This document shows, one piece after another, positions 14,787-63,949 of a stretch of DNA of 64,000 nt. This DNA is from Cruorifilaria tuberocauda. Lineage: Eukaryota > Nematoda > Chromadorea > Rhabditida > Onchocercidae. A program made the position numbers and the translations under genes. Every line of letters starts with the position of its first letter. The stretch's first letter is position 1. A model generated the notes under the pieces. That model searched no databases and was not told where the DNA came from. It worked only from the letters and a program-made list of their open reading frames with translations. The stretch lies in NCBI GenBank assembly GCA_013365365.1, contig JABVXU010000008.1, forward strand, positions 1 through 64,000. The letters run 5' to 3'.

Positions 14787-17719
14787 ATGCGTGAACACAT
14801 AGAACGTCATGTGACAATTGCGTTACAAGATACCTCCACTGGTACCACACCCCATAATGATGCTACCGATAGGTAATTATTTTTGCATTAATTAGAAACA
14901 GAATTTCGAGCAGAATATATATTGCCGACAATTTCTGAAAAGAATCGGAATTCAGTTTCATCCCACATTTTCCCCATTTATGTAAGATGCATATTAGAAT
15001 GAATTTTCTGCGCATTATCTAGCAACATTTACTAATTTTTTCTTATATTTGTGGTTTGAAAGTTTTAGTAGTCCCGCAGCTGCACCTCTTCCTGTACATC
15101 GATCTATGCGTACTATTTCTGGTTCAAAATCCGAAGATCATCTTATCACAACAGAAAGTGGACGTGTATGTAGTTTCACTCATTTGTTAATGTTTGTCAT
15201 AACTTCAAGTTACCTTATTATTTCAATTTTTATTTTATCTGCGAGGTCTTTTGCTATCCTTGATAAGTTACAGCGTATATATACAAAAGGACGTCCACCT
15301 TGGTATGATCGAGAAGGGAAAATTTTAAAACAACCGTATGTGGTTGGAATTTGCGGCGGTTCAGCTTCTGGTAAAACTACTGTTGCCAGAAGAATAATTG
15401 AGCGATTGGAAGTGCCTTGGGTTACCGTTTTGTCTATGGATTCCTTTTACAAAGTATTTTTTTCAAATCGGATTTTTTATATTTCAAATTTACATTTCAC
15501 TTTTCAGTGGTAGAATGACAGTCCTTCCAAAATATTTTGAAAGTTAACTTAAATTTTGCGCTTCAGTTAATAAGTTATTAAAGGTGCTCACAGAAGGACA
15601 GCATCATCTGGCGTCCAGAAATGAATATAATTTCGACCATCCACAAGCCTTCGATTTTGATTTAATGTGCGAAACCGTTCGGCGTCTTCGTGAAGGCAAA
15701 AATGTTGAAGTATGTCATTTCAAAATTTCAGGAAGTCCAAAATTAGCAAATGTTTTCAAAACTTTGAGATAGTTGTTTGTAGGTCCCAGTTTACGATTTC
15801 ACTACCCACCGACGTGACAAACAGCCGAAATTAATGTATGGCGCTGACGTACTTATTTTCGAAGGCATTTTAGCATTCCACAACAAAGAATTGATTGATT
15901 TAATGGATATGAAAGTATAAATGATTAATTTAATTTTTTTCTGAACAAAAGGATTAAAGGCATATATTTTGATCAACAATTTTGAGGTATTTGTGGATAC
16001 TGACCCGGATACACGACTAGCACGAAGACTAGAGAGAGACATCCAGGATCGTGGACGAGATCTTGATGGTGTTTTAACCCAATATTTGCGGTTTGTAAAG
16101 CCAGCTTTTGACACATTTATAGCACCTGGTATGAAAATTGCGGATATTATCGTGCCGCGAGGTGGTGAAAATGAAGTAGCTATAGATCTTATTGTTAAGC
16201 AAGTTAAAACTCAGCTTGCTGAAAGAGGTGAATTATTTTAATTTTATTTCTCTAATTTTCTGGAATGAAATTTCCAAACAGAGATGATAAATAAAGCATT
16301 CTCACAATGTATTTCTAAACTTTGAGGTTATGATGCATCGAAGAATCCTTATTCTCAGCGTGCAGGAATGGTGCAAAAAGATTTACCATTACAGCTTCCA
16401 CGTACCTTAACAGTTGTATCACAAACACCACAAGTTCGTGGCTTGCATACATTTATAAGGGATCGCAAAACTCCAAGGTGATTTATATTAGTTGTACAAG
16501 TTTTTTTTTCAAGAATTTAGAAACTTTCTGCATTTAAACATTGTTTAATTAAATTCATAAAAACCATCATTCCTCAGTTTTCCAGTTTTCAGGGATGAAT
16601 TCAATTTCTATTCTAATAGACTAATGCGAATATTAATCGAAAATGCCATGAATTTTATGCCATTTAAAGATGCCACGGTTACTACGCCAACTATGGAAAA
16701 GTATATTTTAACTCACTTTTTGCGTTATAAAATTATTTTAAAACTTCGATTATCCAGAAATCTTTATGAATGATAGAATCAAAGATTTTTATATGTAGAT
16801 TTGTTGGCAAAAGAAAGATAGCGCAAATATGTGGTGTTACAATCATGCGTGCGGGTGAAACAATGGAACATGCGTTGAGAGCTGTTGTGAAGGATTGCAA
16901 AATGGGCAAAATTTTGATTCAAACCAATGAGAAAACAATGGAACCGGAGTTATTTTATCTGCGTCTGCCGAAGAATATTCATCGATATAAAGTTCTACTG
17001 ATGGATGCTACCGTTGCTACAGGTTTTGTTCCGGTTTCCTTTGCTATAAGAAGCAGTATCGAAATTTGTATTAAAATGTCACCGTCAAAGTTATATGAAC
17101 CTTATCAAGATCCAGTAATACATGAGATTATGTCATGCATCTAATACAGTTGTTTTCGAATCACTTTTTTGAAGTTATTTTGCAGTTTTATTTCATGTCT
17201 TTTCCGAACCTGAACTAAGCCTTATATGGTCAGTAATAACTTTTGTGACTTATTCGAATCTTCAGAAAAATATGTTGATGCTCTAAAATATTACTAATTG
17301 TTGCTCTCATATTGCCGAAGATTTTCGGATTCTTGCAATATTATTAGTACAATAATATCTATTATTACAGGCGCGGCGGCAATGATGGCTATTCGTGTAC
17401 TACTGGATCACGATGTGTTGGAAGAAAATATTCTATTATTGTCATTGCTAATGGCCGGAACTGGTGTACATTCACTTGCTTATGCTTTTCCTAAAGTATG
17501 TCTCAGCTCTAATCTCATTCATTAAAATTTTTTGCTGTTACAGCGGTGATTATAGCATTTATTGATTTGCAGGTTACTTTATTAACAACTGCTGTAGATC
17601 CGCATATCAATGAATTATACTATGTCATTCCGGGAATGGGTAATTTTGGTGATCGCTATTATGGTACTGAGGCAGTAACTGCGTGTGATGATTCCTCAAG
17701 TGGTGAAGAAAATTCATAG
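14787..17719 (+). CDS. UCKL1: Uridine-cytidine kinase-like 1 (kinase + UPRT fusion)
   Basis: Pyrimidine-salvage protein: an N-terminal uridine/cytidine kinase domain fused to a uracil phosphoribosyltransferase-like domain. Exons: 14787-14872, 15063-15165 (or from 15069), 15274-15453, 15584-15709, 15783-15914, 15987-16227, 16327-16477, 16593-16700, 16799-17022, 17371-17495, 17573-17719; total 540 aa (human UCKL1 548). The P-loop GGSASGKTT lies at residues 91-99, after the family block [14 protein letters not shown]. Kinase motifs include [11 protein letters not shown] and YDFTTH. The UPRT half has RAGETM, the PRPP-type loop [15 protein letters not shown] and a C-terminal GNFGDRYYG; the key binding loops appear intact. 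The acidic/serine tail ends EENS. A GCAG acceptor lies 12 nt before the chosen ATG, so trans-splicing there is plausible; an upstream exon cannot be excluded. Confidence 0.95.
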
Positions 17720-25155: not shown

Positions 25156-28100
25156 TCACTGATCCTCTCCAGTATTGATATGATCACCTCCTTTCAGCTC
25201 CATCTGTTTAATATTAGTTCGTTGTCGTTCGCAGCAACACATTACTGCTGCGATGAATAATGCAAGTATTACTGCACTCAATACTGCGATAAACCAAGCT
25301 GCACTTTGCAAGCTTTCTGTAACATTAAATAGTGAATGTTCCATTATTCACTACAGTGCAAAGTTAGATATAGTAAGAAGGGAAATCTTCTGGAAGTTAT
25401 CTAAACTAACTATGTCTATTTTATTCACGCAGTATTCAAATGCAAAACATTGCAGCGTCGCAATAATATTCAGCTTTGTATCTCACACATATCGATAAAA
25501 TTTTTAAATTGAATTTCACTCTTAAGATGGCCATTTTTCAGTTTAATCATAGCAAATGAAGAAACGACGATATTGCAGTGTAGATTCATTCTGGATGTAA
25601 GTTCCAGATAATTTGATCTATATAAATTTCCCTTCTACGCATATCTTCAAACATCAAATAACTTTTGGAAATTGCAGAGTATTTCTGCACTACTCATTTT
25701 TCTAGCCCTCTTTTCTTTTCAGTCTGATTAGGTATTTAAAGTATTCATACCATGGGAGACGTGTGTAATCATAGCTCGACTTAGACTTCGTATTGTGATT
25801 GCTTCAGATGTTCGTTGCCTTTGACCTTCCTTGGCGATACCAACCATTTTATATTGCGTGCCCTCTTCCAGACCATTTAAAACAACTTCAGTTTGTGGTA
25901 AGCTTATTTGCTCACTTTCTATCCATTCATTACTATCTGAATTGTATTAAAATTTATCAGTGATAATTGAATTCTCTATTACTTCAATGACTGAAAAAAA
26001 AGACCGATTTTCAATTAATTAATTTTTCTTCAAGTTGAAATCATACCGGCAATGGAATAATTAACGAGAAAAGTCGATCCTGGCATCGCCCATTCAGAAC
26101 CATTCGAAGGTAACCACTGAACTCGAGCCGTAGTAGGCGAAATTGCTTCAACAGTGAAATTTGGTATGTCTGGTTCTGCAAACATATTCAGAAGTTGAAG
26201 ACGAGTGGCTTGCTTTCATTTGTGGAAGAAGGAAATAACTGACCCGACAAATATCCAGTGTTTTGGAAATTTCAATTATTTGATGCTTATGATAAAACAC
26301 CATAGACCGCATAATGCGGAGGAATTCAAAGTGAACGAAACAGAATAATGAAGAACGATTGCACAAATTTTTTTTAATTTTGTAGTTTGTATTACTTCAT
26401 ATGAGGGGTGATGGATTTATTTTAATAAATTACGATTAGTAACCTTTATGCATTTATTTTATTTTTCAACCGAAATTCCAAGATTTTTGCATAACTGAAA
26501 TGAATGATGTAATACCTCGAAGTGGCCAAGTTCGCACTGGTCGCACAACTTTAGGTCCTTCACCGCCCTTCGTTTCTGCCCAAACAGAAACCTTGTAACC
26601 AGTATCTGGCTCACCTTCCTCATTTAAATAATAAAGTTGACGATTTAATACGAATGTTTCATCTTTTACGCCTGTTGAAGAATCTTAAAATTTTTTCATT
26701 TCAAGTATTAAAAAGCAAACTTGACGCTATATTCAAAAAATTATCAAAAATAATTATTATAACACCATACTTTCAAAAGTAATGAAATAGCCTCGAACGT
26801 ATCCATTTGGTTGTCGTGGCGGTTCCCATGTAACGTATAAACTTCTCGCTCCAACTGCTCGTACCCTCATGTTATGTACTTTTGATGGTACTAAAATATA
26901 TCAGTTGTTAGATTTACTCAGATCAGTTCTCGAGAATTTCATTACTTCCTTACTTCCTTCGGGAGTCGTGAATTTGATTATTGCTGGCAATTCACTAAGG
27001 TACCGATTATTCGCTGTTCTTATGCGTGCCGTATAGTTCGTTATCGGCTTTAAATCATGGAGAATCGTCTCGTTCCTATGTTTTGCAATTCCAACACTTA
27101 CTATAGAAAATGGCTTGTCATTTTCCCAGTAGTCAATCTAAAAAAAAGAAAATGAAAGAAGGGTCAAAGGAGAAATCTGAATGAGTAACTATAATTTATT
27201 CGTACCACATTTGACAAACTAAAAACTACATAATTTACCAGATAACCCTTGAAATGACCACGTACAGATTCCCGATTCACATGTTTCCATATAAGAAGAA
27301 CGGAAGTACAATTTATGAATTCAGAAACGCTGAAATCAACCGGCGACAACAATGGTGCTGCAAAGACATCGAGTTCAACATTTTAACAACATTTTAAGAT
27401 ATTTTTGCATTTAGATACTGAGCGATTTACCATCCTCTCCTGAAAATCCTTTGACACTTGTTGGCTTTACAATTGCACGACCAAAACTATTCAAAGATTC
27501 AACTTGAATCAAATATTCTTGGAATGTTGGCTGGTCCCGAACAACTGTATGATTCTGAAATTTTCAAATAAATATGTGATTCATACGAACTAAAATGAAG
27601 TAATATTCAGCAAATAACTTACAGCTAAGGGATCTTCGATTCGTATTTCTGTCCAAGTTTCCCCCGGTTCATTAAGCTTGTAACGGACAATGTACTGTAA
27701 TCCTGGGCCATTCCAATCATATTTATCCATAGGCTTCCATTCGATCACCATATTATTTGGTTCACTCCCTTCCGCTCGGACATCCTTTGGATTTGTATAC
27801 GGATAGTAAGCTTTCGTGGAACACATCTTCCCCTTTTTGAAGCCTGGATCACTTTCACCATGTGAATTCTGAGCTATCACTCGAAATGTGTAATTCACCT
27901 GAAATATAACGGTTCGTTTATAAATTTCATTAAATTGCTCATTAGGGAGTGAAGTTGGTCTTATATAAGTTAGATGACTCAATTCAAAATTCTCAACATT
28001 TTTAATATATTTTGCCTGAATGTCAAAATTTTAAATTCTTACCCAAGGTGAAAGTGGAATATTTGCCTGGTAAAAATCAGCAGCAGTATTTTCTTCCTTT

Positions 28101-31100
28101 GCAATAGTTCTCCACAATCCCTAAAACTGCAAATTTGACTTTTGTCAAGAACTAAATTTTAGAAAAAATTTCATTTTGAGTAAAACACACTTCTTCAAAT
28201 TCAGTATGCATTTGAACCAGAAATTGTTTAATTTGGTCACCATGATCATCTGGTCGACGCCATCTTAGCAATGCTCTTCTTTCGTTACAATTTATTTCTG
28301 TTACTAATGGCGCGCCAGGCACATCTGTAAATTTGAATAATTCAATCGAAAAAGTTTTCAAACAAAAATTTTCAAAAATTTATTTTGGAAAGCATTATTC
28401 CGTTAAAAAATAAAATAGTGGGGTTGTCCAAGAAATATAATAAATTATATATGCGTGCATGAGAAAAATTTTCAGAAGCTCTTTAGAACATTTGAGAATA
28501 TATGAATATGAAAAAAATAGAAATGAAATTAGCACCAAGTACAGTTAATTCAGTTCCTGAAATTTTGACATCAACATCGGTAAGAGCGATGCAGTCAATA
28601 GTTCCTGAATGAAAACCACGAGCATTAATGATTGATAGAGAATTGTTTAACAGCCTGAAAATTTCTGAATTTGATACATTTTAAATTTCTACTCTGTTCA
28701 GAATTCAGTAATCTTAATGATGTTATAGCTGAAATTTAAGAAAAACGGAAATTCAACGAGAATAGAAAAATCATCATGATGTTCTTAAATTATTTAATGT
28801 CGACCAAATATTTCAGAAGTTATCAAAACGAAACATACTTGAAATGGACAGAGTCGTTAATTGCTTTTCCGTTATGAGTCCAGGAGTATTCAATTGTAAG
28901 TCGAGGATCACAAACTGCTTCACATACGTATTCCACTGATTCGTGCGCTTCCAGAATTGTTTTCTTAGGAGTTGGCACACGAACGAAATGTGTTGGACCT
29001 GTTGAATAAAAAGCGCATATAAATAACAATTAATAAATGAAATTATGATAAAATATTTGATTTATACTTTTTAGCAGTTAAACTTAATTGCTAATTAGGA
29101 GGGAGATTACTGAAAACTTGTAGTCGATTGACAGCCCGATTAATACCATACTTGTTCGATACATTACAATAGTAAAGACCTTCATCAGCAGAATTTACTT
29201 GTGATATGCGTAATGTATGATTAGGGAAAATCTGAAAAGAAATGTAAATTTCAATAACTGCTACTTTTACTTCAAGAAAAGTTGAAGTTTTTTATGCACC
29301 AATTTTTTAGATGATTTGGATACTATAATAACAAAAATATCGACGAAAACTAATTTATATGTTTATGATGCAGTCAGTATTAAAAGAGAAATATTAATTG
29401 ATTTCAAAGTTCAATAGATCGTAAGTAACACTTTCTATGACTGAATGTCGCATTCAATTAATTAATAATGCAAACAAGCTAACATGGATTTTTCCGAGAA
29501 CAATAGCAATGGAATGGTCATTAGCATCTACCCATTTGACTATTGCTTCCGGTGCTGCATCAACACGGCATGACATTTCTACGGTTGATTTACGTACCAC
29601 ATTCCAGATACGACGACTTGGCATTTTGAAATATGGAGCATAAGCTATAACCAAATCAAATTTGATTTTGATTTGGATTTGATGATTTTTTTCTCAACAA
29701 TTTATAAATATTTAAGTTAGATTAAATGAATATTTGTCAACAATAGTCAAGGATTCAATCTCTCATGTTCAAAACCTTTCAACTGATAATGGCAAAATGT
29801 AAGGCGATGGATAATTTCATATGAATAAATCCGATAATCAAAAAGTTGAGGCAGATAGAAAATTAACAATATTTGGACGAATAAAATGGGCAATTTCAGA
29901 TCTGAGTACAGTTTGAAGCAATGAAATATCACAATGATTCCAGTTGAATTACCGCGCACATTCACGAAGGCATTTCCAAAAACGAAACCAAACGGATTCG
30001 ACGCATTGCATTGATATACAGCTGTATCAACATCATGATCTAGATTTACGATCCGTAATATTTGACCATTTTTTAAAATCATACGTCGATCATTGTCTGC
30101 CAACTCTACAGCAACTATTACAGCTGATGATAAATAATAAAATTGGAATCAAACTCAAATTAAATGTTTATTGTATATTGTTAAGTATGGATGTTCTGGA
30201 AAAACTAATTCATCTATAAATGATAAATTAGAAGTAAACGAAAACTATCTTTATTACACCTTACCAAATTCTTTTAATCAATCACAAGGTGCTTAAGCAT
30301 CACATACATCACTTTTAGTATCAATCCACCAATCATTAACAATGTTTATGAAAAGTAAACATTCTTACTGCAAAGTTTTATATATTCAAAATTATACCAT
30401 GTAATGGCACACTGTTGATAAACCATTGAACGATCGGGGTCGGAATACCCGATGTTATGCAATGAATTTCAACAGCACTTCCTTCCGGTTCATCAACATC
30501 CTGTGGTGGCTTATCAATCCAAAATGGGGCTACTGAAATAAATTTCAGATTTAAATCATTTGAATAAAAGTTCAAAAAAGAAGACACATCTGATTAGGCA
30601 AGTTTTATAATTGTTTTATTGCAATTTTCAAATTCTTATTGAGTCTAAACATTATATAACGAATTATTTGATTTAATTAAATGTTAACAGTTTTAAAATA
30701 ATCCATAGGAAGATTACCAATGATAGTGACATGCATTTGATGAAATAGATGCTGTGATCGGCATTCATATATTCCTTCATCTTCCGGGCGAATATTTTCT
30801 ATGATCAGGGCTTTACCGTAATCAGTTTCTTGTGACTTAAAATCTTTTAATCGAGTAAACGGCAATTCACCATTTAATTTATTCCATGTTATATTTGGTA
30901 AAGGCCTGAATTTGTTGCAATTTAATAATGTTTTGCTGTTTGAAGAAAAACAGTGATTCATGTTACAAATATGTTTAAAGCAAATTCTATTTTTAGAAAA
31001 TGAAATTAGACGGCAGTGAGTTACAAGTTGTAAGAAATTTACCTTCCGCCGAAAATGCACATCAGTTTAAGTTTGTTTCCCACTTTGACAGATACTTCTT

Positions 31101-59646: not shown

Positions 59647-61468
59647 ATGGCAGTCGGTATGGATTTCTTTTCTTCGAGTTTTGATGCTGAAATAGTTTTA
59701 AATGATCTTAGCCCTCCGTCCTTTAGCGGGTTCAGAAATTTCGAGTCAGTTGATAAATTTGAACAGTACTTATGGAACACAAATGCAAATATCGTCACAC
59801 AGTTACAAAAACTGGAACTTCAAGAAAATGCAGATACTAAATCGCTAAATAGACTATCCAGGTAAACTATTATGATATGGATTTTTACGCAACCATATTT
59901 TCTCAGTACCGTTTTAATATACGCCTGTTCTCGACGTAATATGCCAAATATGCACGTAACGAATATGAATGTGAATGATAACAAATATTTGCATAACATT
60001 TTGAATATAATGAGAACTTGTAGTTAGCTGGTAGGGAAGAGTAAGGAAAGTGTGAGGAATTAAATATTACGTATATACGACTGCGAGGTCTCCTTATTTC
60101 ACCCTCCAGTATTTGTTCTATTTCCCTACCACTGTTTATTCATCAGAATCCATTCTTCCATTTATAAGCATTTCAATTAGCAGTATACTTTTTATTTGGT
60201 ACGATCGTCGAATGAAACCATGGCTATCAAATATAAGAATAGTCAGAATAATAAATTGTCAGTATAATTCTCAGAAGCTAAGCAAAATTCGATCTGAGCA
60301 GTCAAGGCTGTTTTTTTTCACATTCGTTCTGTTGCCGCATTTTTGAATTATTATTGTTCCTCGTTTTTAGCAAATGAAGCAAAACTTATTTCAGAGAAGC
60401 TCGGCTATCACAAATGTGCGCACAAAGAGGAAGAGAGGTAATTGAACCCGTTCAGGAATTAAAAATCCTCAATAAGGTAACTTTATTTATTCACATCGAA
60501 ATTAGCTTTTAGTTTTCAACTTTAATATTGGTTACTTATAGATATGGAACGGTAATTTATCTCAAACAGATCAGCAAGGACCAATGAAACGTTTGGAAGA
60601 ATGCGTGGAGCTAGGGCACCCAGTATGCATAAGTTTGCGAGGACGAAATTGCGTGAATTCTTTCATTCAGGCAAAAGTCGTTGCATTCGATAAACACTGG
60701 AACCTGCTGATAAGGTTTGTCATACAGTGCTGGCTTCCCACGTAACCTTTCATCCCAAGTCATTACCGGTCTTATAAAAGTGATGTTCCTAAATGATTGT
60801 AAAAGCTATGAGGTGAAACCTTTAATGTTCTATCAAAACTTTAATGGATGTGCTACCCATTTAACATGGTACGGTTCCAAGTTGAACTGCGTTTACTTGA
60901 GAATACAGAAACGTGATTCGTATCAAAGAAATCAATATAAACCAAGACTTCAATCCAACATTAAACATTTACAGTTGATAGAATTTGATGAGCATTTAAT
61001 GATTCACAAGTGTATAATCGACAAAGTAATATAGGGATGGTGATGAGAGTTTCATGCCACCAATAAGAATAAAACATCGAGTCACCAAAAGTACGCAAAT
61101 AACAGCATCAAACCAGTATTCAGAAAGCCAATACGAGGATAAGGAAGGCAAAACAAAAACATTATGGCGACGTCATCTGCCATTTTCTCTAATACGTGGG
61201 GACGACGTTGTTCTGATTTTCATTTCTCCGCAATTGTCTATTAGGCATTTCTTACGGTAAGTACATTCGAAGAGACTTTTGTGTTTAGTCTCTCATTTTT
61301 AGAATTTTTAGAAAACAAGGGATGATCATTAAGGAATTAACGGGACAAGGAGTCACATATCAGATTCCAGAAAGCCTTTTCGTCTTTTGCAGAATAATTT
61401 TAACAATTAAACATTTAGGTCCGATTTTACACCACAAAACAACAAAGCATTTGATAAAATTATTTTAA
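59647..61468 (+). CDS. LSM11: LSM11-like U7 snRNP Sm-fold protein
   Basis: U7-specific Sm-like protein that, with LSM10, replaces SmD1/SmD2 in the U7 snRNP for 3' cleavage of histone pre-mRNA. Exons 59647-59861, 60395-60476, 60542-60714, 61035-61256 and 61303-61468 chain in phase to 285 aa. The N-terminus FFSSSFDAEIVLNDLSP with a following FESVDKFEQYL matches the conserved LSM11 N-terminal block (SSDSFDP..., EYESFL). The Sm1 motif (about 117-168) has VVAFDKHWNLLI and DGDESF, the LSM11 form VAFDKFWNM...DVDET. The Sm2 motif is LIRGDDVVLIFI (209-219), matching IRGENVLLVHL. The spacer between Sm1 and Sm2 is only about 40 residues; in vertebrate LSM11 it is much longer. Residues after about 225 have no counterpart, so the last exon is uncertain: without that splice the protein stops at 61260. 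A GTAG acceptor lies one base before the ATG. Confidence 0.85.
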
Positions 61469-61488: not shown

Positions 61489-63949
61489 TTACGGTGCAAT
61501 ACCATCCACTTTCATTAGTCTTAGCTGAGCATACTGCATATCCAATGCTTTTTCGAGTGGCTTACCCTGTAATTTTTTCCAGTTTACAGCTAGTATGTTT
61601 GTCGGCTTCTATAATGCGTAAAGATTTATACTGGAATTGCACTGCACTATTCTGAGTTTTACAATAAATTAATACCTTGTAACTAGATATACATTGATAA
61701 AAATTTTGGGCAAAGTCTGCAGGAAGAAATAACTGCAAATACTGATCAAATCTGCAAAAATGATTCCATGATTACAGCAGTGTCAAATTTCGGATGTTTT
61801 AATCTTGGATCAAAGCAGTAAAATCAATAGATCGTCTCACCTTTCCAAAGAATAAGATCGTAGAGTTTGTAAACATACATAGATTTCGTGCTGGAGCAAA
61901 ACACACTGAGCGTCTGTAAGGTCATGATGTGCATTAAGAGGAGCCTGCAAACAGTACTTCCAGGTCATGTTTATATCGTATTTTGAAGAAGCAGAAAACT
62001 GCGAATGCACTTGGAGAAATTGCACGAATAGAGCGCTTTTGCGCGCGTGAAATACTCTTCCAAAATAATTTTTGCAACATATATGTAAAAAAATTACCTG
62101 AAGCGCACCACAAACTGCCTTTTCCCATAAAAACTCAAAGAAATCAGTCGATCCATCGTTCGACAGCTTCAGAAATAGTTTGTTAATAATTTGAAATGTA
62201 ATCCGTTGCGTTGGTACATCATTCAAGTTCATAAAAGAAACGAGCGAGTCTGCTACTTTGTGGAGAAATCCAGTGTCTTCAAATTAAAAGTTAATTGCAG
62301 TTATTTTTGGTTAAATGATAAAATCTAGAAATGAATTAACAGGAAATCGCAGCAATAAATCTTTGAGATTGCTTACCACGCTCTCTTATCATAGCAATTA
62401 AGTCGTGTGTTAAGATGCTTAAGATTGTTTGCAGAAAAGCTCGGTTATAATAAATTATATCCCTATCACAAGTCTCATTGGATATATCAAATGATGTTCT
62501 TTGTGCGCTCCATAAGATATCAAATAAAGCAGGGATATTCAGACCAGTTTCCAAAAGACGCTTCTGAAATAGAGCTTGTTACTCTCTTAATAGAAGTATT
62601 CCAGAGATAACTACTCCTTCAAGTGCAGTTGATTTGCTGAGAGCTGGTACTTGATTCAGAATGAAGCAAAAAGCAAAACAGTCCATAGTAACACACCTTA
62701 AACTTGCCGAGAATTTGCTGCAATAAAACAAGAAAGTCATGCATCACTTTAATGTCTGGGCCAACGTCAAGATACTTGTCGCAAATGGCTGGTAACATAG
62801 CTAATATTTCACCATCAAGGCAAGTGACCATCCGATGAAGGTACTGACGCAATGCATCCAGTCCTTCCACGTTATCTGGAGTTATCTTATCCAGAAAAAC
62901 CTAAGAATTATAATAATTTATTACTGTCTCAATAACCAGGAAGATGATAAACAATTAAAGAAACACAGTATAGTTTAAGAAACCATGTTTCCCTTCCATA
63001 ATGGTCTTCGCTCTATCTACTGAACATTAATAAAAAACGTAAAAAAGTCCTCTAGCAAGACTGAGATGTGAGGCAACAAATGATGAACATACTTCCATCA
63101 ACTCAATAAAAACAATAGTGCATTGATAACGTTGCATAGTATAGTTATTTGTAAATGCTTTGGTAACACGTCTGAAAATATGAGTAGTCTTGAAGAGCAT
63201 GATTACTTCTCTAAGCTATGTATAATTACCAAGAACAGATTTCAAGATTTTGAAAACTTACGCGCTGTAACCAATAACATTAGCATATTGTTTATGAAGC
63301 TGCTGTGCTTCTTCCATATTTTTTGTTCGTGATAATTTTTCCGTTATGCGTGAGAATTTTTGAAGTAATGATAAACCGAGAACTTTAATGCATTCCTGTT
63401 TCCTTTCAACAGGTAGATTGCTATGAACAATCAGAATTGATGTAGATTCATATAAGTACATCTAAAATCCGATCAAAAGCGATAACCCAGTGCTTCTTCC
63501 GGATGGTTCAAATTCAGATACAAACCTAATATTCGATAAAGCAATTAATAATTCTCAATATGCTTAAAACTTAACTAATAAGTTGAAAAAAAAAACACTT
63601 TAACACTTACAATTGCAAACACAAAGTAAAGAACGACATATACAACCAAACAGTCCAGATGATGATATAGAAGGAAGTCTTGGGAAAGAAAAAAACCTGA
63701 TCCTCTTTCGAGAGTTGGCAATCCTCTTCTGACGTTACTGTAAAAAATGGTTCCAACTGTGAGAGAATATTTTCAGCTTGGTTACCTAAGAAAATCCTGA
63801 AAAATATTTTTTGAAACAGCAATTCAAAAAACCATTTGCGAAAAGTTTTCTTACTTATGAGCTTTTACAAAGCGACAAAATAAATAGATTATGCGACTTC
63901 TTGATTGCAACGAAACCTGGCGAAGACCATATATATCCAGAAATGCTTC
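61489..63949 (-). CDS. xpo-3: Exportin-T (tRNA exportin), C-terminal half, runs off the right edge
   Basis: Karyopherin that carries mature tRNA out of the nucleus with Ran-GTP. Visible exons from 5': 63855-63949, 63697-63796, 63262-63461, 63039-63171, 62697-62900, 62377-62563, 62098-62276, 61841-61944, 61676-61751, 61489-61566; phases agree and give the last 451 residues (whole family about 960). Matching blocks, in order, are GLRQVSLQSRSRIIYLFCRF, YESTSILIVHSNLPVERKQE, VIGYSARVTKAF, LRQYLHRMVTCLDGEIL and LTDAQCVLLQHEI. The 5' half lies beyond the window. The last exon (product ending VDGIAP) was chosen over a 30-codon alternative at 61562-61651 because its sequence looks more protein-like. 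The symbol is by C. elegans orthology. Confidence 0.9.

What the first reader, a model, noticed from the sequence alone, without database searches (positions are those of the whole stretch)
59647..61468. LSM11-like protein in a nematode, implying a U7-type histone mRNA machinery
Three separate LSM11 hallmarks are visible: the N-terminal SFDP-type block with FEQYL, the Sm1 variant AFDKHWNLLI with DGDES, and the Sm2 IRGDDV. The exon chain is in phase and complete. C. elegans is held to lack U7 snRNA and to process histone mRNA by another route, so an intact LSM11 gene here suggests that other nematode clades kept U7 or reuse this protein. The Sm1-Sm2 spacer is much shorter than in vertebrates, so the protein may also have diverged in role.
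Basis: partly seen in the sequence, partly recalled or inferred. Interest (0 to 1): 0.85.

Follow-up and report, generated by a model that had tools for sequence, protein, structure and literature searches.

The report
Histone-processing U7 machinery in a roundworm
A parasitic roundworm genome carries the two special ring proteins, the guide RNA gene and the matching target sites of the animal machine that trims histone messages, a machine that the model worm C. elegans is reported to lack.

Summary
In detail: five in-phase exons at 59647-61468 encode an LSM11 orthologue. The single sequence and the nematode profile both hit human LSm11 first and SmD2 next among solved structures. SmD2 is a separate gene.

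(1) A two-exon LSM10 gene lies on contig C617. (2) All five histone stem-loops found (H1, H3, H2A, H2B, H4; contig C416) have a conserved element 13-14 nt after the stem. (3) The complement of that element occurs at 39 places. Exactly one, on C554, combines a U7-like Sm site, a terminal hairpin and an snRNA promoter core at fitting distance. SLBP is present.

So this filarial-like nematode most likely keeps a complete U7 snRNP. LSM11 relatives occur in filariae, Thelazia and Toxocara. Papers seen in passages say that C. elegans lacks U7, which would then be a lineage loss. Expression, FLASH, and U7 in relatives were not tested.

The parts
59647..59861 (+). LSM11 exon 1 (start codon; N-terminal block)
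   Evidence: in-frame tblastn match to P0001
59659..59772 (+). N-terminal block MDFFSSSFDAEIVL...FESVDKFEQYL, aligned to human LSM11 LDVSSDSFDPLLAL...FNNVAEYESFL in the N-terminal domain that binds FLASH
   Evidence: 0 of 1000 shuffles reach the alignment score; hhalign of the nematode profile to human LSM11 starts here
60395..60476 (+). LSM11 exon 2 (REARLSQMCAQRGR block, conserved among the nematode proteins)
   Evidence: match to the human CPSF73-contact helix not significant (462 of 1000 shuffles)
60542..60714 (+). LSM11 exon 3: start of Sm domain and Sm1 AFDKHWNLLI
61035..61256 (+). LSM11 exon 4: DGDES, short spacer, Sm2 IRGDDVVLIF (about 61171-61221)
61312..61468 (+).
61321..61404 (+). 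Stretch that encodes, in another frame and with one in-frame TAA, the C-terminal tail seen in four filarial homologues
   Evidence: tblastn E 9e-12

Best explanation
The window gene is the LSM11 orthologue of a filarial-type nematode, and it works in a complete U7 snRNP. Inferred mechanism: LSM10 and LSM11 replace SmD1 and SmD2 in the Sm ring on a short U7 snRNA. The 5' end of U7 base-pairs with a conserved element 13-14 nt after the stem-loop of replication-dependent histone pre-mRNAs. SLBP binds the stem-loop. The LSM11 N-terminus recruits the cleavage module (through FLASH in animals that have been studied), and CPSF73 cuts between the stem-loop and the element. Shown here, by sequence only: both proteins, a U7-like gene found once in the assembly, matching elements after five of five histone stem-loops found, and an SLBP gene. 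Inferred: transcription of U7, ring assembly, cleavage, and the FLASH partner.
For: LSM11: phmmer best hit human LSm11, E 5e-5, against SmD2 5e-3. Profile of 13 proteins: LSm11 4e-10, best SmD2 1e-7. hhalign to human LSM11, E 4e-8, from its N-terminal block through Sm1. An SmD2 gene is separate, at C221 (4e-29). LSM10: two-exon gene of 118 aa on C617; best hit human LSm10 3e-9, then SmD3 8e-7, best SmD1 0.014; profile LSm10 4e-12, next 2e-8; SmD1 separate. Histone genes: five of five stem-loops are followed at fixed distance by ATGRRTC(A/T)TGCT. U7: of 39 places with AGCATGAYTCAT, three are the histone genes' own elements. Of the other 36, one combines the Sm-like site ATTTTGTCCAG, a perfect 7-bp hairpin and the promoter core AACCACT upstream. 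The core starts 71 nt before AGCATGA. In U2 and two of four U1 genes it starts 57-58 nt before the RNA, so U7 would begin about 13 nt before AGCATGA. Controls: Sm site plus hairpin 0 of 692,956 background positions; promoter core in 0.58% of positions and in 1 of 39 places. The gene was found once. SLBP at E 3e-13.
Against: Rfam's U7 model does not find the gene: its best place in the genome was another one, at 21.6 bits against a gathering score of 34, and scanning the gene itself gave no U7 match up to E 10. A stricter Sm pattern (ATTTNTC) missed the candidate, so the relaxed pattern and hairpin rule were set after the candidate had been seen. The promoter-core test was also written afterwards. 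The U7-element pairing energy is not independent evidence, because the candidate was found with the complement of the element. The promoter pattern search did not return the U7 gene within 3 mismatches and gave as many matches (13) for its reversed control; two of four U1 genes and U5 do not show the core clearly. The CPSF73-contact helix is not recognisable. No expression data, no FLASH search, no second nematode genome. The predicted structure shows an Sm fold but does not tell LSm11 from other Sm proteins.
Confidence: 0.92

Rival explanations
1. The gene is an LSM11 orthologue, but the ring has been reused: LSM10/LSM11 sit on another small RNA or act without histone cleavage, and histone ends are made as proposed for C. 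elegans (small-RNA pathway, or cleavage at a poly(A) signal and trimming).
For: C. elegans makes stem-loop histone ends although no U7 was found there (PMC1924863, PMC6509145, PMC7038979; passages). This worm's stem-loop has the same CTTT loop as reported for C. elegans.
Against: A U7-like gene with complement to all five downstream elements is present. The poly(A) signal that follows directly in C. elegans (PMC1924863) is absent within 60 nt of the stem in five of five genes; scanning 200 nt, the first AATAAA/ATTAAA lies at 68 nt in H2B and 104 nt in H2A, with none in H1, H3 and H4.
Confidence: 0.05
2. The gene is a diverged SmD2 paralogue without any link to U7.
For: SmD2 is the second-best family; in the Foldseek list SmD2 chains mix with LSm11 chains.
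Against: A separate SmD2 gene exists. The N-terminal block, the AFDKxWN...DxDE Sm1 and the gap between Sm1 and Sm2 are LSM11 traits. LSM10 co-occurs.
Confidence: 0.02
3. The proteins are real, but the C554 gene is a chance look-alike and the true U7 has not been found.
For: Rfam does not recognise it; some criteria were set after it was seen; conservation in relatives could not be tested.
Against: Three features not used in the search coincide in one of 36 places: Sm site, hairpin, promoter core at fitting distance.
Confidence: 0.05

Closest known systems
Animal U7 snRNP (human, PDB 6v4x, 8g1u, 9nh5; other animals recalled)
   Same: LSM10 and LSM11 as SmD1/SmD2 replacements; short U7 RNA with 5' antisense segment, GUC-type Sm site (recalled) and one 3' hairpin; stem-loop plus downstream element in histone genes; SLBP.
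   Different: The downstream element is a mixed 13-nt sequence, ATGRRTC(A/T)TGCT, rather than purine-rich. The LSM11 Sm1-Sm2 spacer is very short. U7 is not detected by Rfam RF00066.
C. elegans histone 3' end formation (CDL-1/SLBP, putative AATCC element; PMC1924863)
   Same: Stem-loop with the same CTTT loop, SLBP, and a conserved element after the hairpin.
   Different: C. elegans has an AATCC core followed directly by a poly(A) signal, and is reported to have no U7 (PMC6509145, PMC7038979; passages). The worm studied here has a different, longer element, no near poly(A) signal, LSM10, LSM11 and a U7-like gene.
Unlabelled filarial proteins (Brugia malayi Bm10989, Loa loa 'Sm protein', Acanthocheilonema 'LSM domain family protein')
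   Same: Same LSM11 family (alignment A2), already in databases.
   Different: In the names printed (cut short) they are LSM or Sm domain proteins, uncharacterised or unnamed; none is called LSM11.

Membership tests
LSM11 | Closer to LSM11 than to SmD2 | tested here: met
   SmD2 separate; no tree built
LSM11 | N-terminal extension with SFD...YExFL block (in the FLASH-binding domain) | tested here: met
   (0 of 1000 shuffles for the window protein; for five of the 12 relatives tried singly 6, 15, 11, 100 and 24 of 500)
LSM11 | Helix contacting CPSF73 (human residues 107-118; PMC12774660) | tested here: inconclusive
   462 of 1000 shuffles; a conserved REARLSQMCA block lies near the place but is not demonstrably the same
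LSM11 | Sm1 and Sm2 split by a long spacer | tested here: inconclusive
   Gap present but short: about 16 profile positions against about 110 residues
LSM10 | Closer to LSM10 than to SmD1/SmD3, with N-terminal NSL..LL..EG block | tested here: met
U7 snRNA | 5' segment complementary to the histone downstream element | tested here: met
   (search criterion, so not independent)
U7 snRNA | Noncanonical Sm site like AAUUUGUCUAG (recalled) and one 3' hairpin | tested here: met
   AUUUUGUCCAG and GGACCGC-UCUG-GCGGUCC; stricter pattern failed
U7 snRNA | snRNA-type promoter element at the usual distance | tested here: met
   the core is clear in U2 and two of four U1 genes only
U7 snRNA | Reaches Rfam RF00066 score | tested here: not met
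   whether the Rfam model includes nematodes was not checked. Because of this I call it a U7-like gene that most likely is U7
U7 snRNA | Expressed, capped, in a ring with LSM10/LSM11 | not testable with these tools
   no RNA or protein data
U7-dependent histone processing | Stem-loop plus downstream element in replication-dependent histone genes | tested here: met
   5 of 5 stem-loops found
U7-dependent histone processing | SLBP gene | tested here: met
   one match over the family cut-off
U7-dependent histone processing | FLASH gene | not tested

The most novel reading that the evidence does not exclude
The last common ancestor of spirurine nematodes and C. elegans processed histone mRNA with U7 snRNP. 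Filariae, and perhaps ascarids, still do, while the C. elegans line lost U7, LSM10 and LSM11 and kept a relic downstream element (AATCC) that is now read by another route. Nematodes would then be a natural experiment in replacing an essential RNP.
Probability: 0.5. Interest if true: 0.85.

Novelty: new member of a known kind. Interest (0 to 1): 0.8.

Why it matters
Statements that worms lack U7 rest on C. elegans. PMC7038979 (passages) says that U7 'is not found in worms' and that it is unclear how histone ends mature there. A nematode with a U7-like gene, LSM10, LSM11 and a fixed-distance downstream element turns that into a loss that can be mapped on the nematode tree. It gives a comparison species for the C. 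elegans question, and shows that a U7 gene missed by Rfam can be found through its target.

Tried and rejected
Rfam U7 search of the genome: best 21.6 bits, 16 places up to E 10, none over the cut-off; rejected as chance. One search printed 29 of the 39 complement places and none looked like U7; the other ten were fetched and read and gave the candidate. A promoter pattern with up to 3 mismatches returned 13 places and 13 for the reversed control; the U2 gene and two U1 genes are among the 13, the U7 gene is not. SmD1-like tandem paralogue at C465:16097 tested as LSM10: rejected, best hit SmD1 3e-14. CPSF73 helix homology: not significant. LSM10 structure model: mean pLDDT 45, not used. The LSM11 model (a homologue; pLDDT about 65-80 in the Sm parts) has an Sm fold, but in the 50 Foldseek rows shown LSm11 chains (ranks 17, 18, 29, 31) stand among and below other Sm chains, SmD2 chains included, so it does not discriminate.

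Literature for U7 or LSM11 in nematodes. 'U7 snRNA' with 'Spirurina' and with 'filarial' gave 0 papers each. In the others I saw only the listed papers (10 of 4,258, 5 of 1,818, 15 of 173, for example) with title and start of abstract, and parts of eight papers; none of these describes a U7 RNA or an LSM11 gene in a nematode. The library lacks most subscription papers; Davila Lopez and Samuelsson 2008 and one paper asked for by DOI are not held. Papers seen: PMC12774660 abstract and sections 4 and 15; PMC1924863 abstract, passages and part 1 of 5 of section 3; passages only of PMC6509145, PMC5636114, PMC7605716, PMC12898128, PMC7038979 and PMC3843822.

Full report
The gene. Five exons at 59647-61468 (+), with GT/AG at every inner border, join in phase to 282 codons. 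Eleven database proteins match at E <= 7e-46: ten filariae (Cercopithifilaria, Acanthocheilonema, Loa, Onchocerca flexuosa and O. ochengi, Brugia pahangi and B. malayi, Wuchereria, Litomosoides, Setaria) at 57-75% identity, and Thelazia at 45%. A profile search added one Toxocara canis protein (5e-29), whose record stops before Sm2. No rhabditid protein was returned, but the method needs shared exact words, so that absence is weak evidence. The genome (71.7 Mb, 1108 contigs) is thus filarial-like; it is unnamed.

Is it LSM11? Against all PDB chains the single sequence hits human LSm11 first (5e-5), SmD2 next (5e-3). The 13-sequence profile gives LSm11 4e-10, best SmD2 1e-7, with Sm1 and Sm2 both aligned. 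Profile alignment to human LSM11 runs from its N-terminal block to Sm1 (E 4e-8, probability 95). The N-terminal block of the window protein beats 1000 of 1000 shuffles. For five of the 12 relatives taken singly, 6, 15, 11, 100 and 24 of 500 shuffles reach their score, and for two of these the best local match lies elsewhere. An SmD2 gene is found separately, on C221 (4e-29). Pfam's LSM model scores the protein below its cut-off (15.7 against 23.4 bits), and the genome-wide LSM scan (16 matches) does not list this gene, which shows how diverged it is. The predicted structure of a homologue shows a helix and the strands of an Sm fold but does not discriminate LSm11 from other Sm proteins. No tree was built.

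The C-terminus. Four of 12 homologues (P0001, P0004, P0006, P0008) end in a tail of the type RK(P/S)FRLLQD. The tail lies beyond Sm2. I leave the end of the protein open.

LSM10. A search with human LSM10 gave four places. One, on C617, was not among the 16 LSM-family matches. It has an upstream exon with the LSM10-like NSL..LL..EG block; the two exons join in phase to 118 aa. Best PDB hit LSm10 3e-9, then SmD3 8e-7, best SmD1 0.014. The profile with seven relatives gives LSm10 4e-12, next 2e-8. Relatives: Cercopithifilaria, Loa, Acanthocheilonema, Onchocerca flexuosa and three shorter unnamed proteins. SmD1 is a separate gene, with a tandem SmD1-like copy that is not LSM10.

Histone genes. 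A pattern with up to 3 mismatches found five stem-loops, all on C416 between 17234 and 24891 (0 for the reversed control). They follow ORFs for H3, H4 and H2A (recognised by motif) and for H1 and H2B (labelled by eye). After the stem all five read ACAA(A/T)T, then the element: H1 TATGAATCATGCT, H3 GATGGGTCATGCT, H2A TATGAATCTTGCT, H2B GATGAGTCATGCT, H4 TATGAGTCATGCT, with the TC(A/T)TGCT core 13 or 14 nt after the stem in five of five. In C. elegans the corresponding place has an AATCC core that its authors proposed as a U7 site, followed directly by AATAAA (PMC1924863: abstract, passages and the first part of its main section). Here no AATAAA or ATTAAA lies within 60 nt of the stem in five of five genes (which scanned 200 nt).

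U7. A U7 for these elements should read AGCATGAYTCAT. This was deduced from the elements before any candidate was seen. Thirty-nine exact places exist (reversed control: 1), three of them the histone genes themselves. All 39 were read. An Sm-like screen written before the candidate had been printed flagged seven of them; the later scripted test flagged five for TTTNTC, of which one, C554, also has a hairpin (40 occurrences because one place lay in two loci), and it is the only one of 39 with the promoter core. It reads ...TCTTGGGTTAAGCATGATTCATATTTTGTCCAGATGGACCGCTCTGGCGGTCCGACAT. It has AUUUUGUCCAG where animal U7 has AAUUUGUCUAG (recalled), then a hairpin of 7 bp with a 4-nt loop, and GAAACCACTC starting 71 nt upstream of AGCATGA. 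In U2 and two of four U1 genes of this genome the like-placed core starts 57-58 nt before the RNA; in the other two U1 genes and in U5 I could not fit it clearly. This puts the U7 5' end near C554:28922 and the hairpin end at 28866, about 57 nt. Controls: Sm site plus GC-rich 7-bp hairpin in 0 of 692,956 positions of the window and other fetched loci (some loci overlap); promoter core in 0.58% of positions. The relaxed Sm pattern, the hairpin rule and the promoter-core test were fixed after the candidate had been seen, and an earlier, stricter Sm pattern had missed it. Pairing energies with the five elements are -22.4 to -25.1 kcal/mol, 0 of 500 shuffles each, but the complement was the search key, so this is not independent. 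Two positions of the element vary between A and G, and U7 has U at both, which pairs with either; only one of the two was free in the key. The gene was found once in the assembly.

Other parts. SLBP is present. FLASH was not searched for. In human LSM11 residues 107-118 contact CPSF73 (PMC12774660: abstract and two sections); the nematode proteins have a conserved REARLSQMCA block near there, but similarity to the human helix is no better than chance.

What is known. PMC6509145 (passages) cites Davila Lopez and Samuelsson 2008, which I could not read, for the absence of a conserved U7 sequence in C. elegans, and a CSR-1 small-RNA route as the replacement in the germline. PMC7038979 (passages) says that U7 'is not found in worms'. 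Among the papers listed by my searches in the held library I saw none that describes a U7 RNA or LSM11 gene in a nematode (several lists were cut). The proteins are in databases under general names.

Verdict. It is a known kind of machine in a lineage where it was thought missing, with unusual features: a non-purine element, a compact LSM11, and a U7 outside Rfam's reach. What remains is RNA-level proof and a survey of the nematode tree.

Noticed in passing
G000:C465:16097-16276 (L005), next to SmD1 at C465:13898: Tandem SmD1-like paralogue, best hit SmD1 (3e-14); a second SmD1-type gene or pseudogene in the same cluster.
   Followed up: partly
window 61321-61404 (+): Conserved filarial LSM11 C-terminal tail is present in another frame with an in-frame TAA, so this species seems to have a changed or truncated tail.
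   Followed up: partly
window 14998-15513 (+): Open frame with the start of a uridine kinase family domain (PF00485, 5.5e-6).
   Followed up: no
window 27590-28030 (-): Open frame with a fibronectin type III domain (PF00041, 4e-6).
   Followed up: no
window 61837-62283 (-): 148-codon open frame downstream of LSM11 on the other strand; no Pfam match up to E 0.01.
   Followed up: no
G000:C513:3947 (L080): Promoter-like core followed by a sequence with an inverted repeat (CCGGATTTC...GAAATCCGG); possibly another small RNA gene, not tested.
   Followed up: no
G000:C416:17215-17921: The H1 gene carries the histone stem-loop here, whereas C. elegans H1 genes are reported not to have the conserved 3' elements (PMC1924863).
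   Followed up: partly
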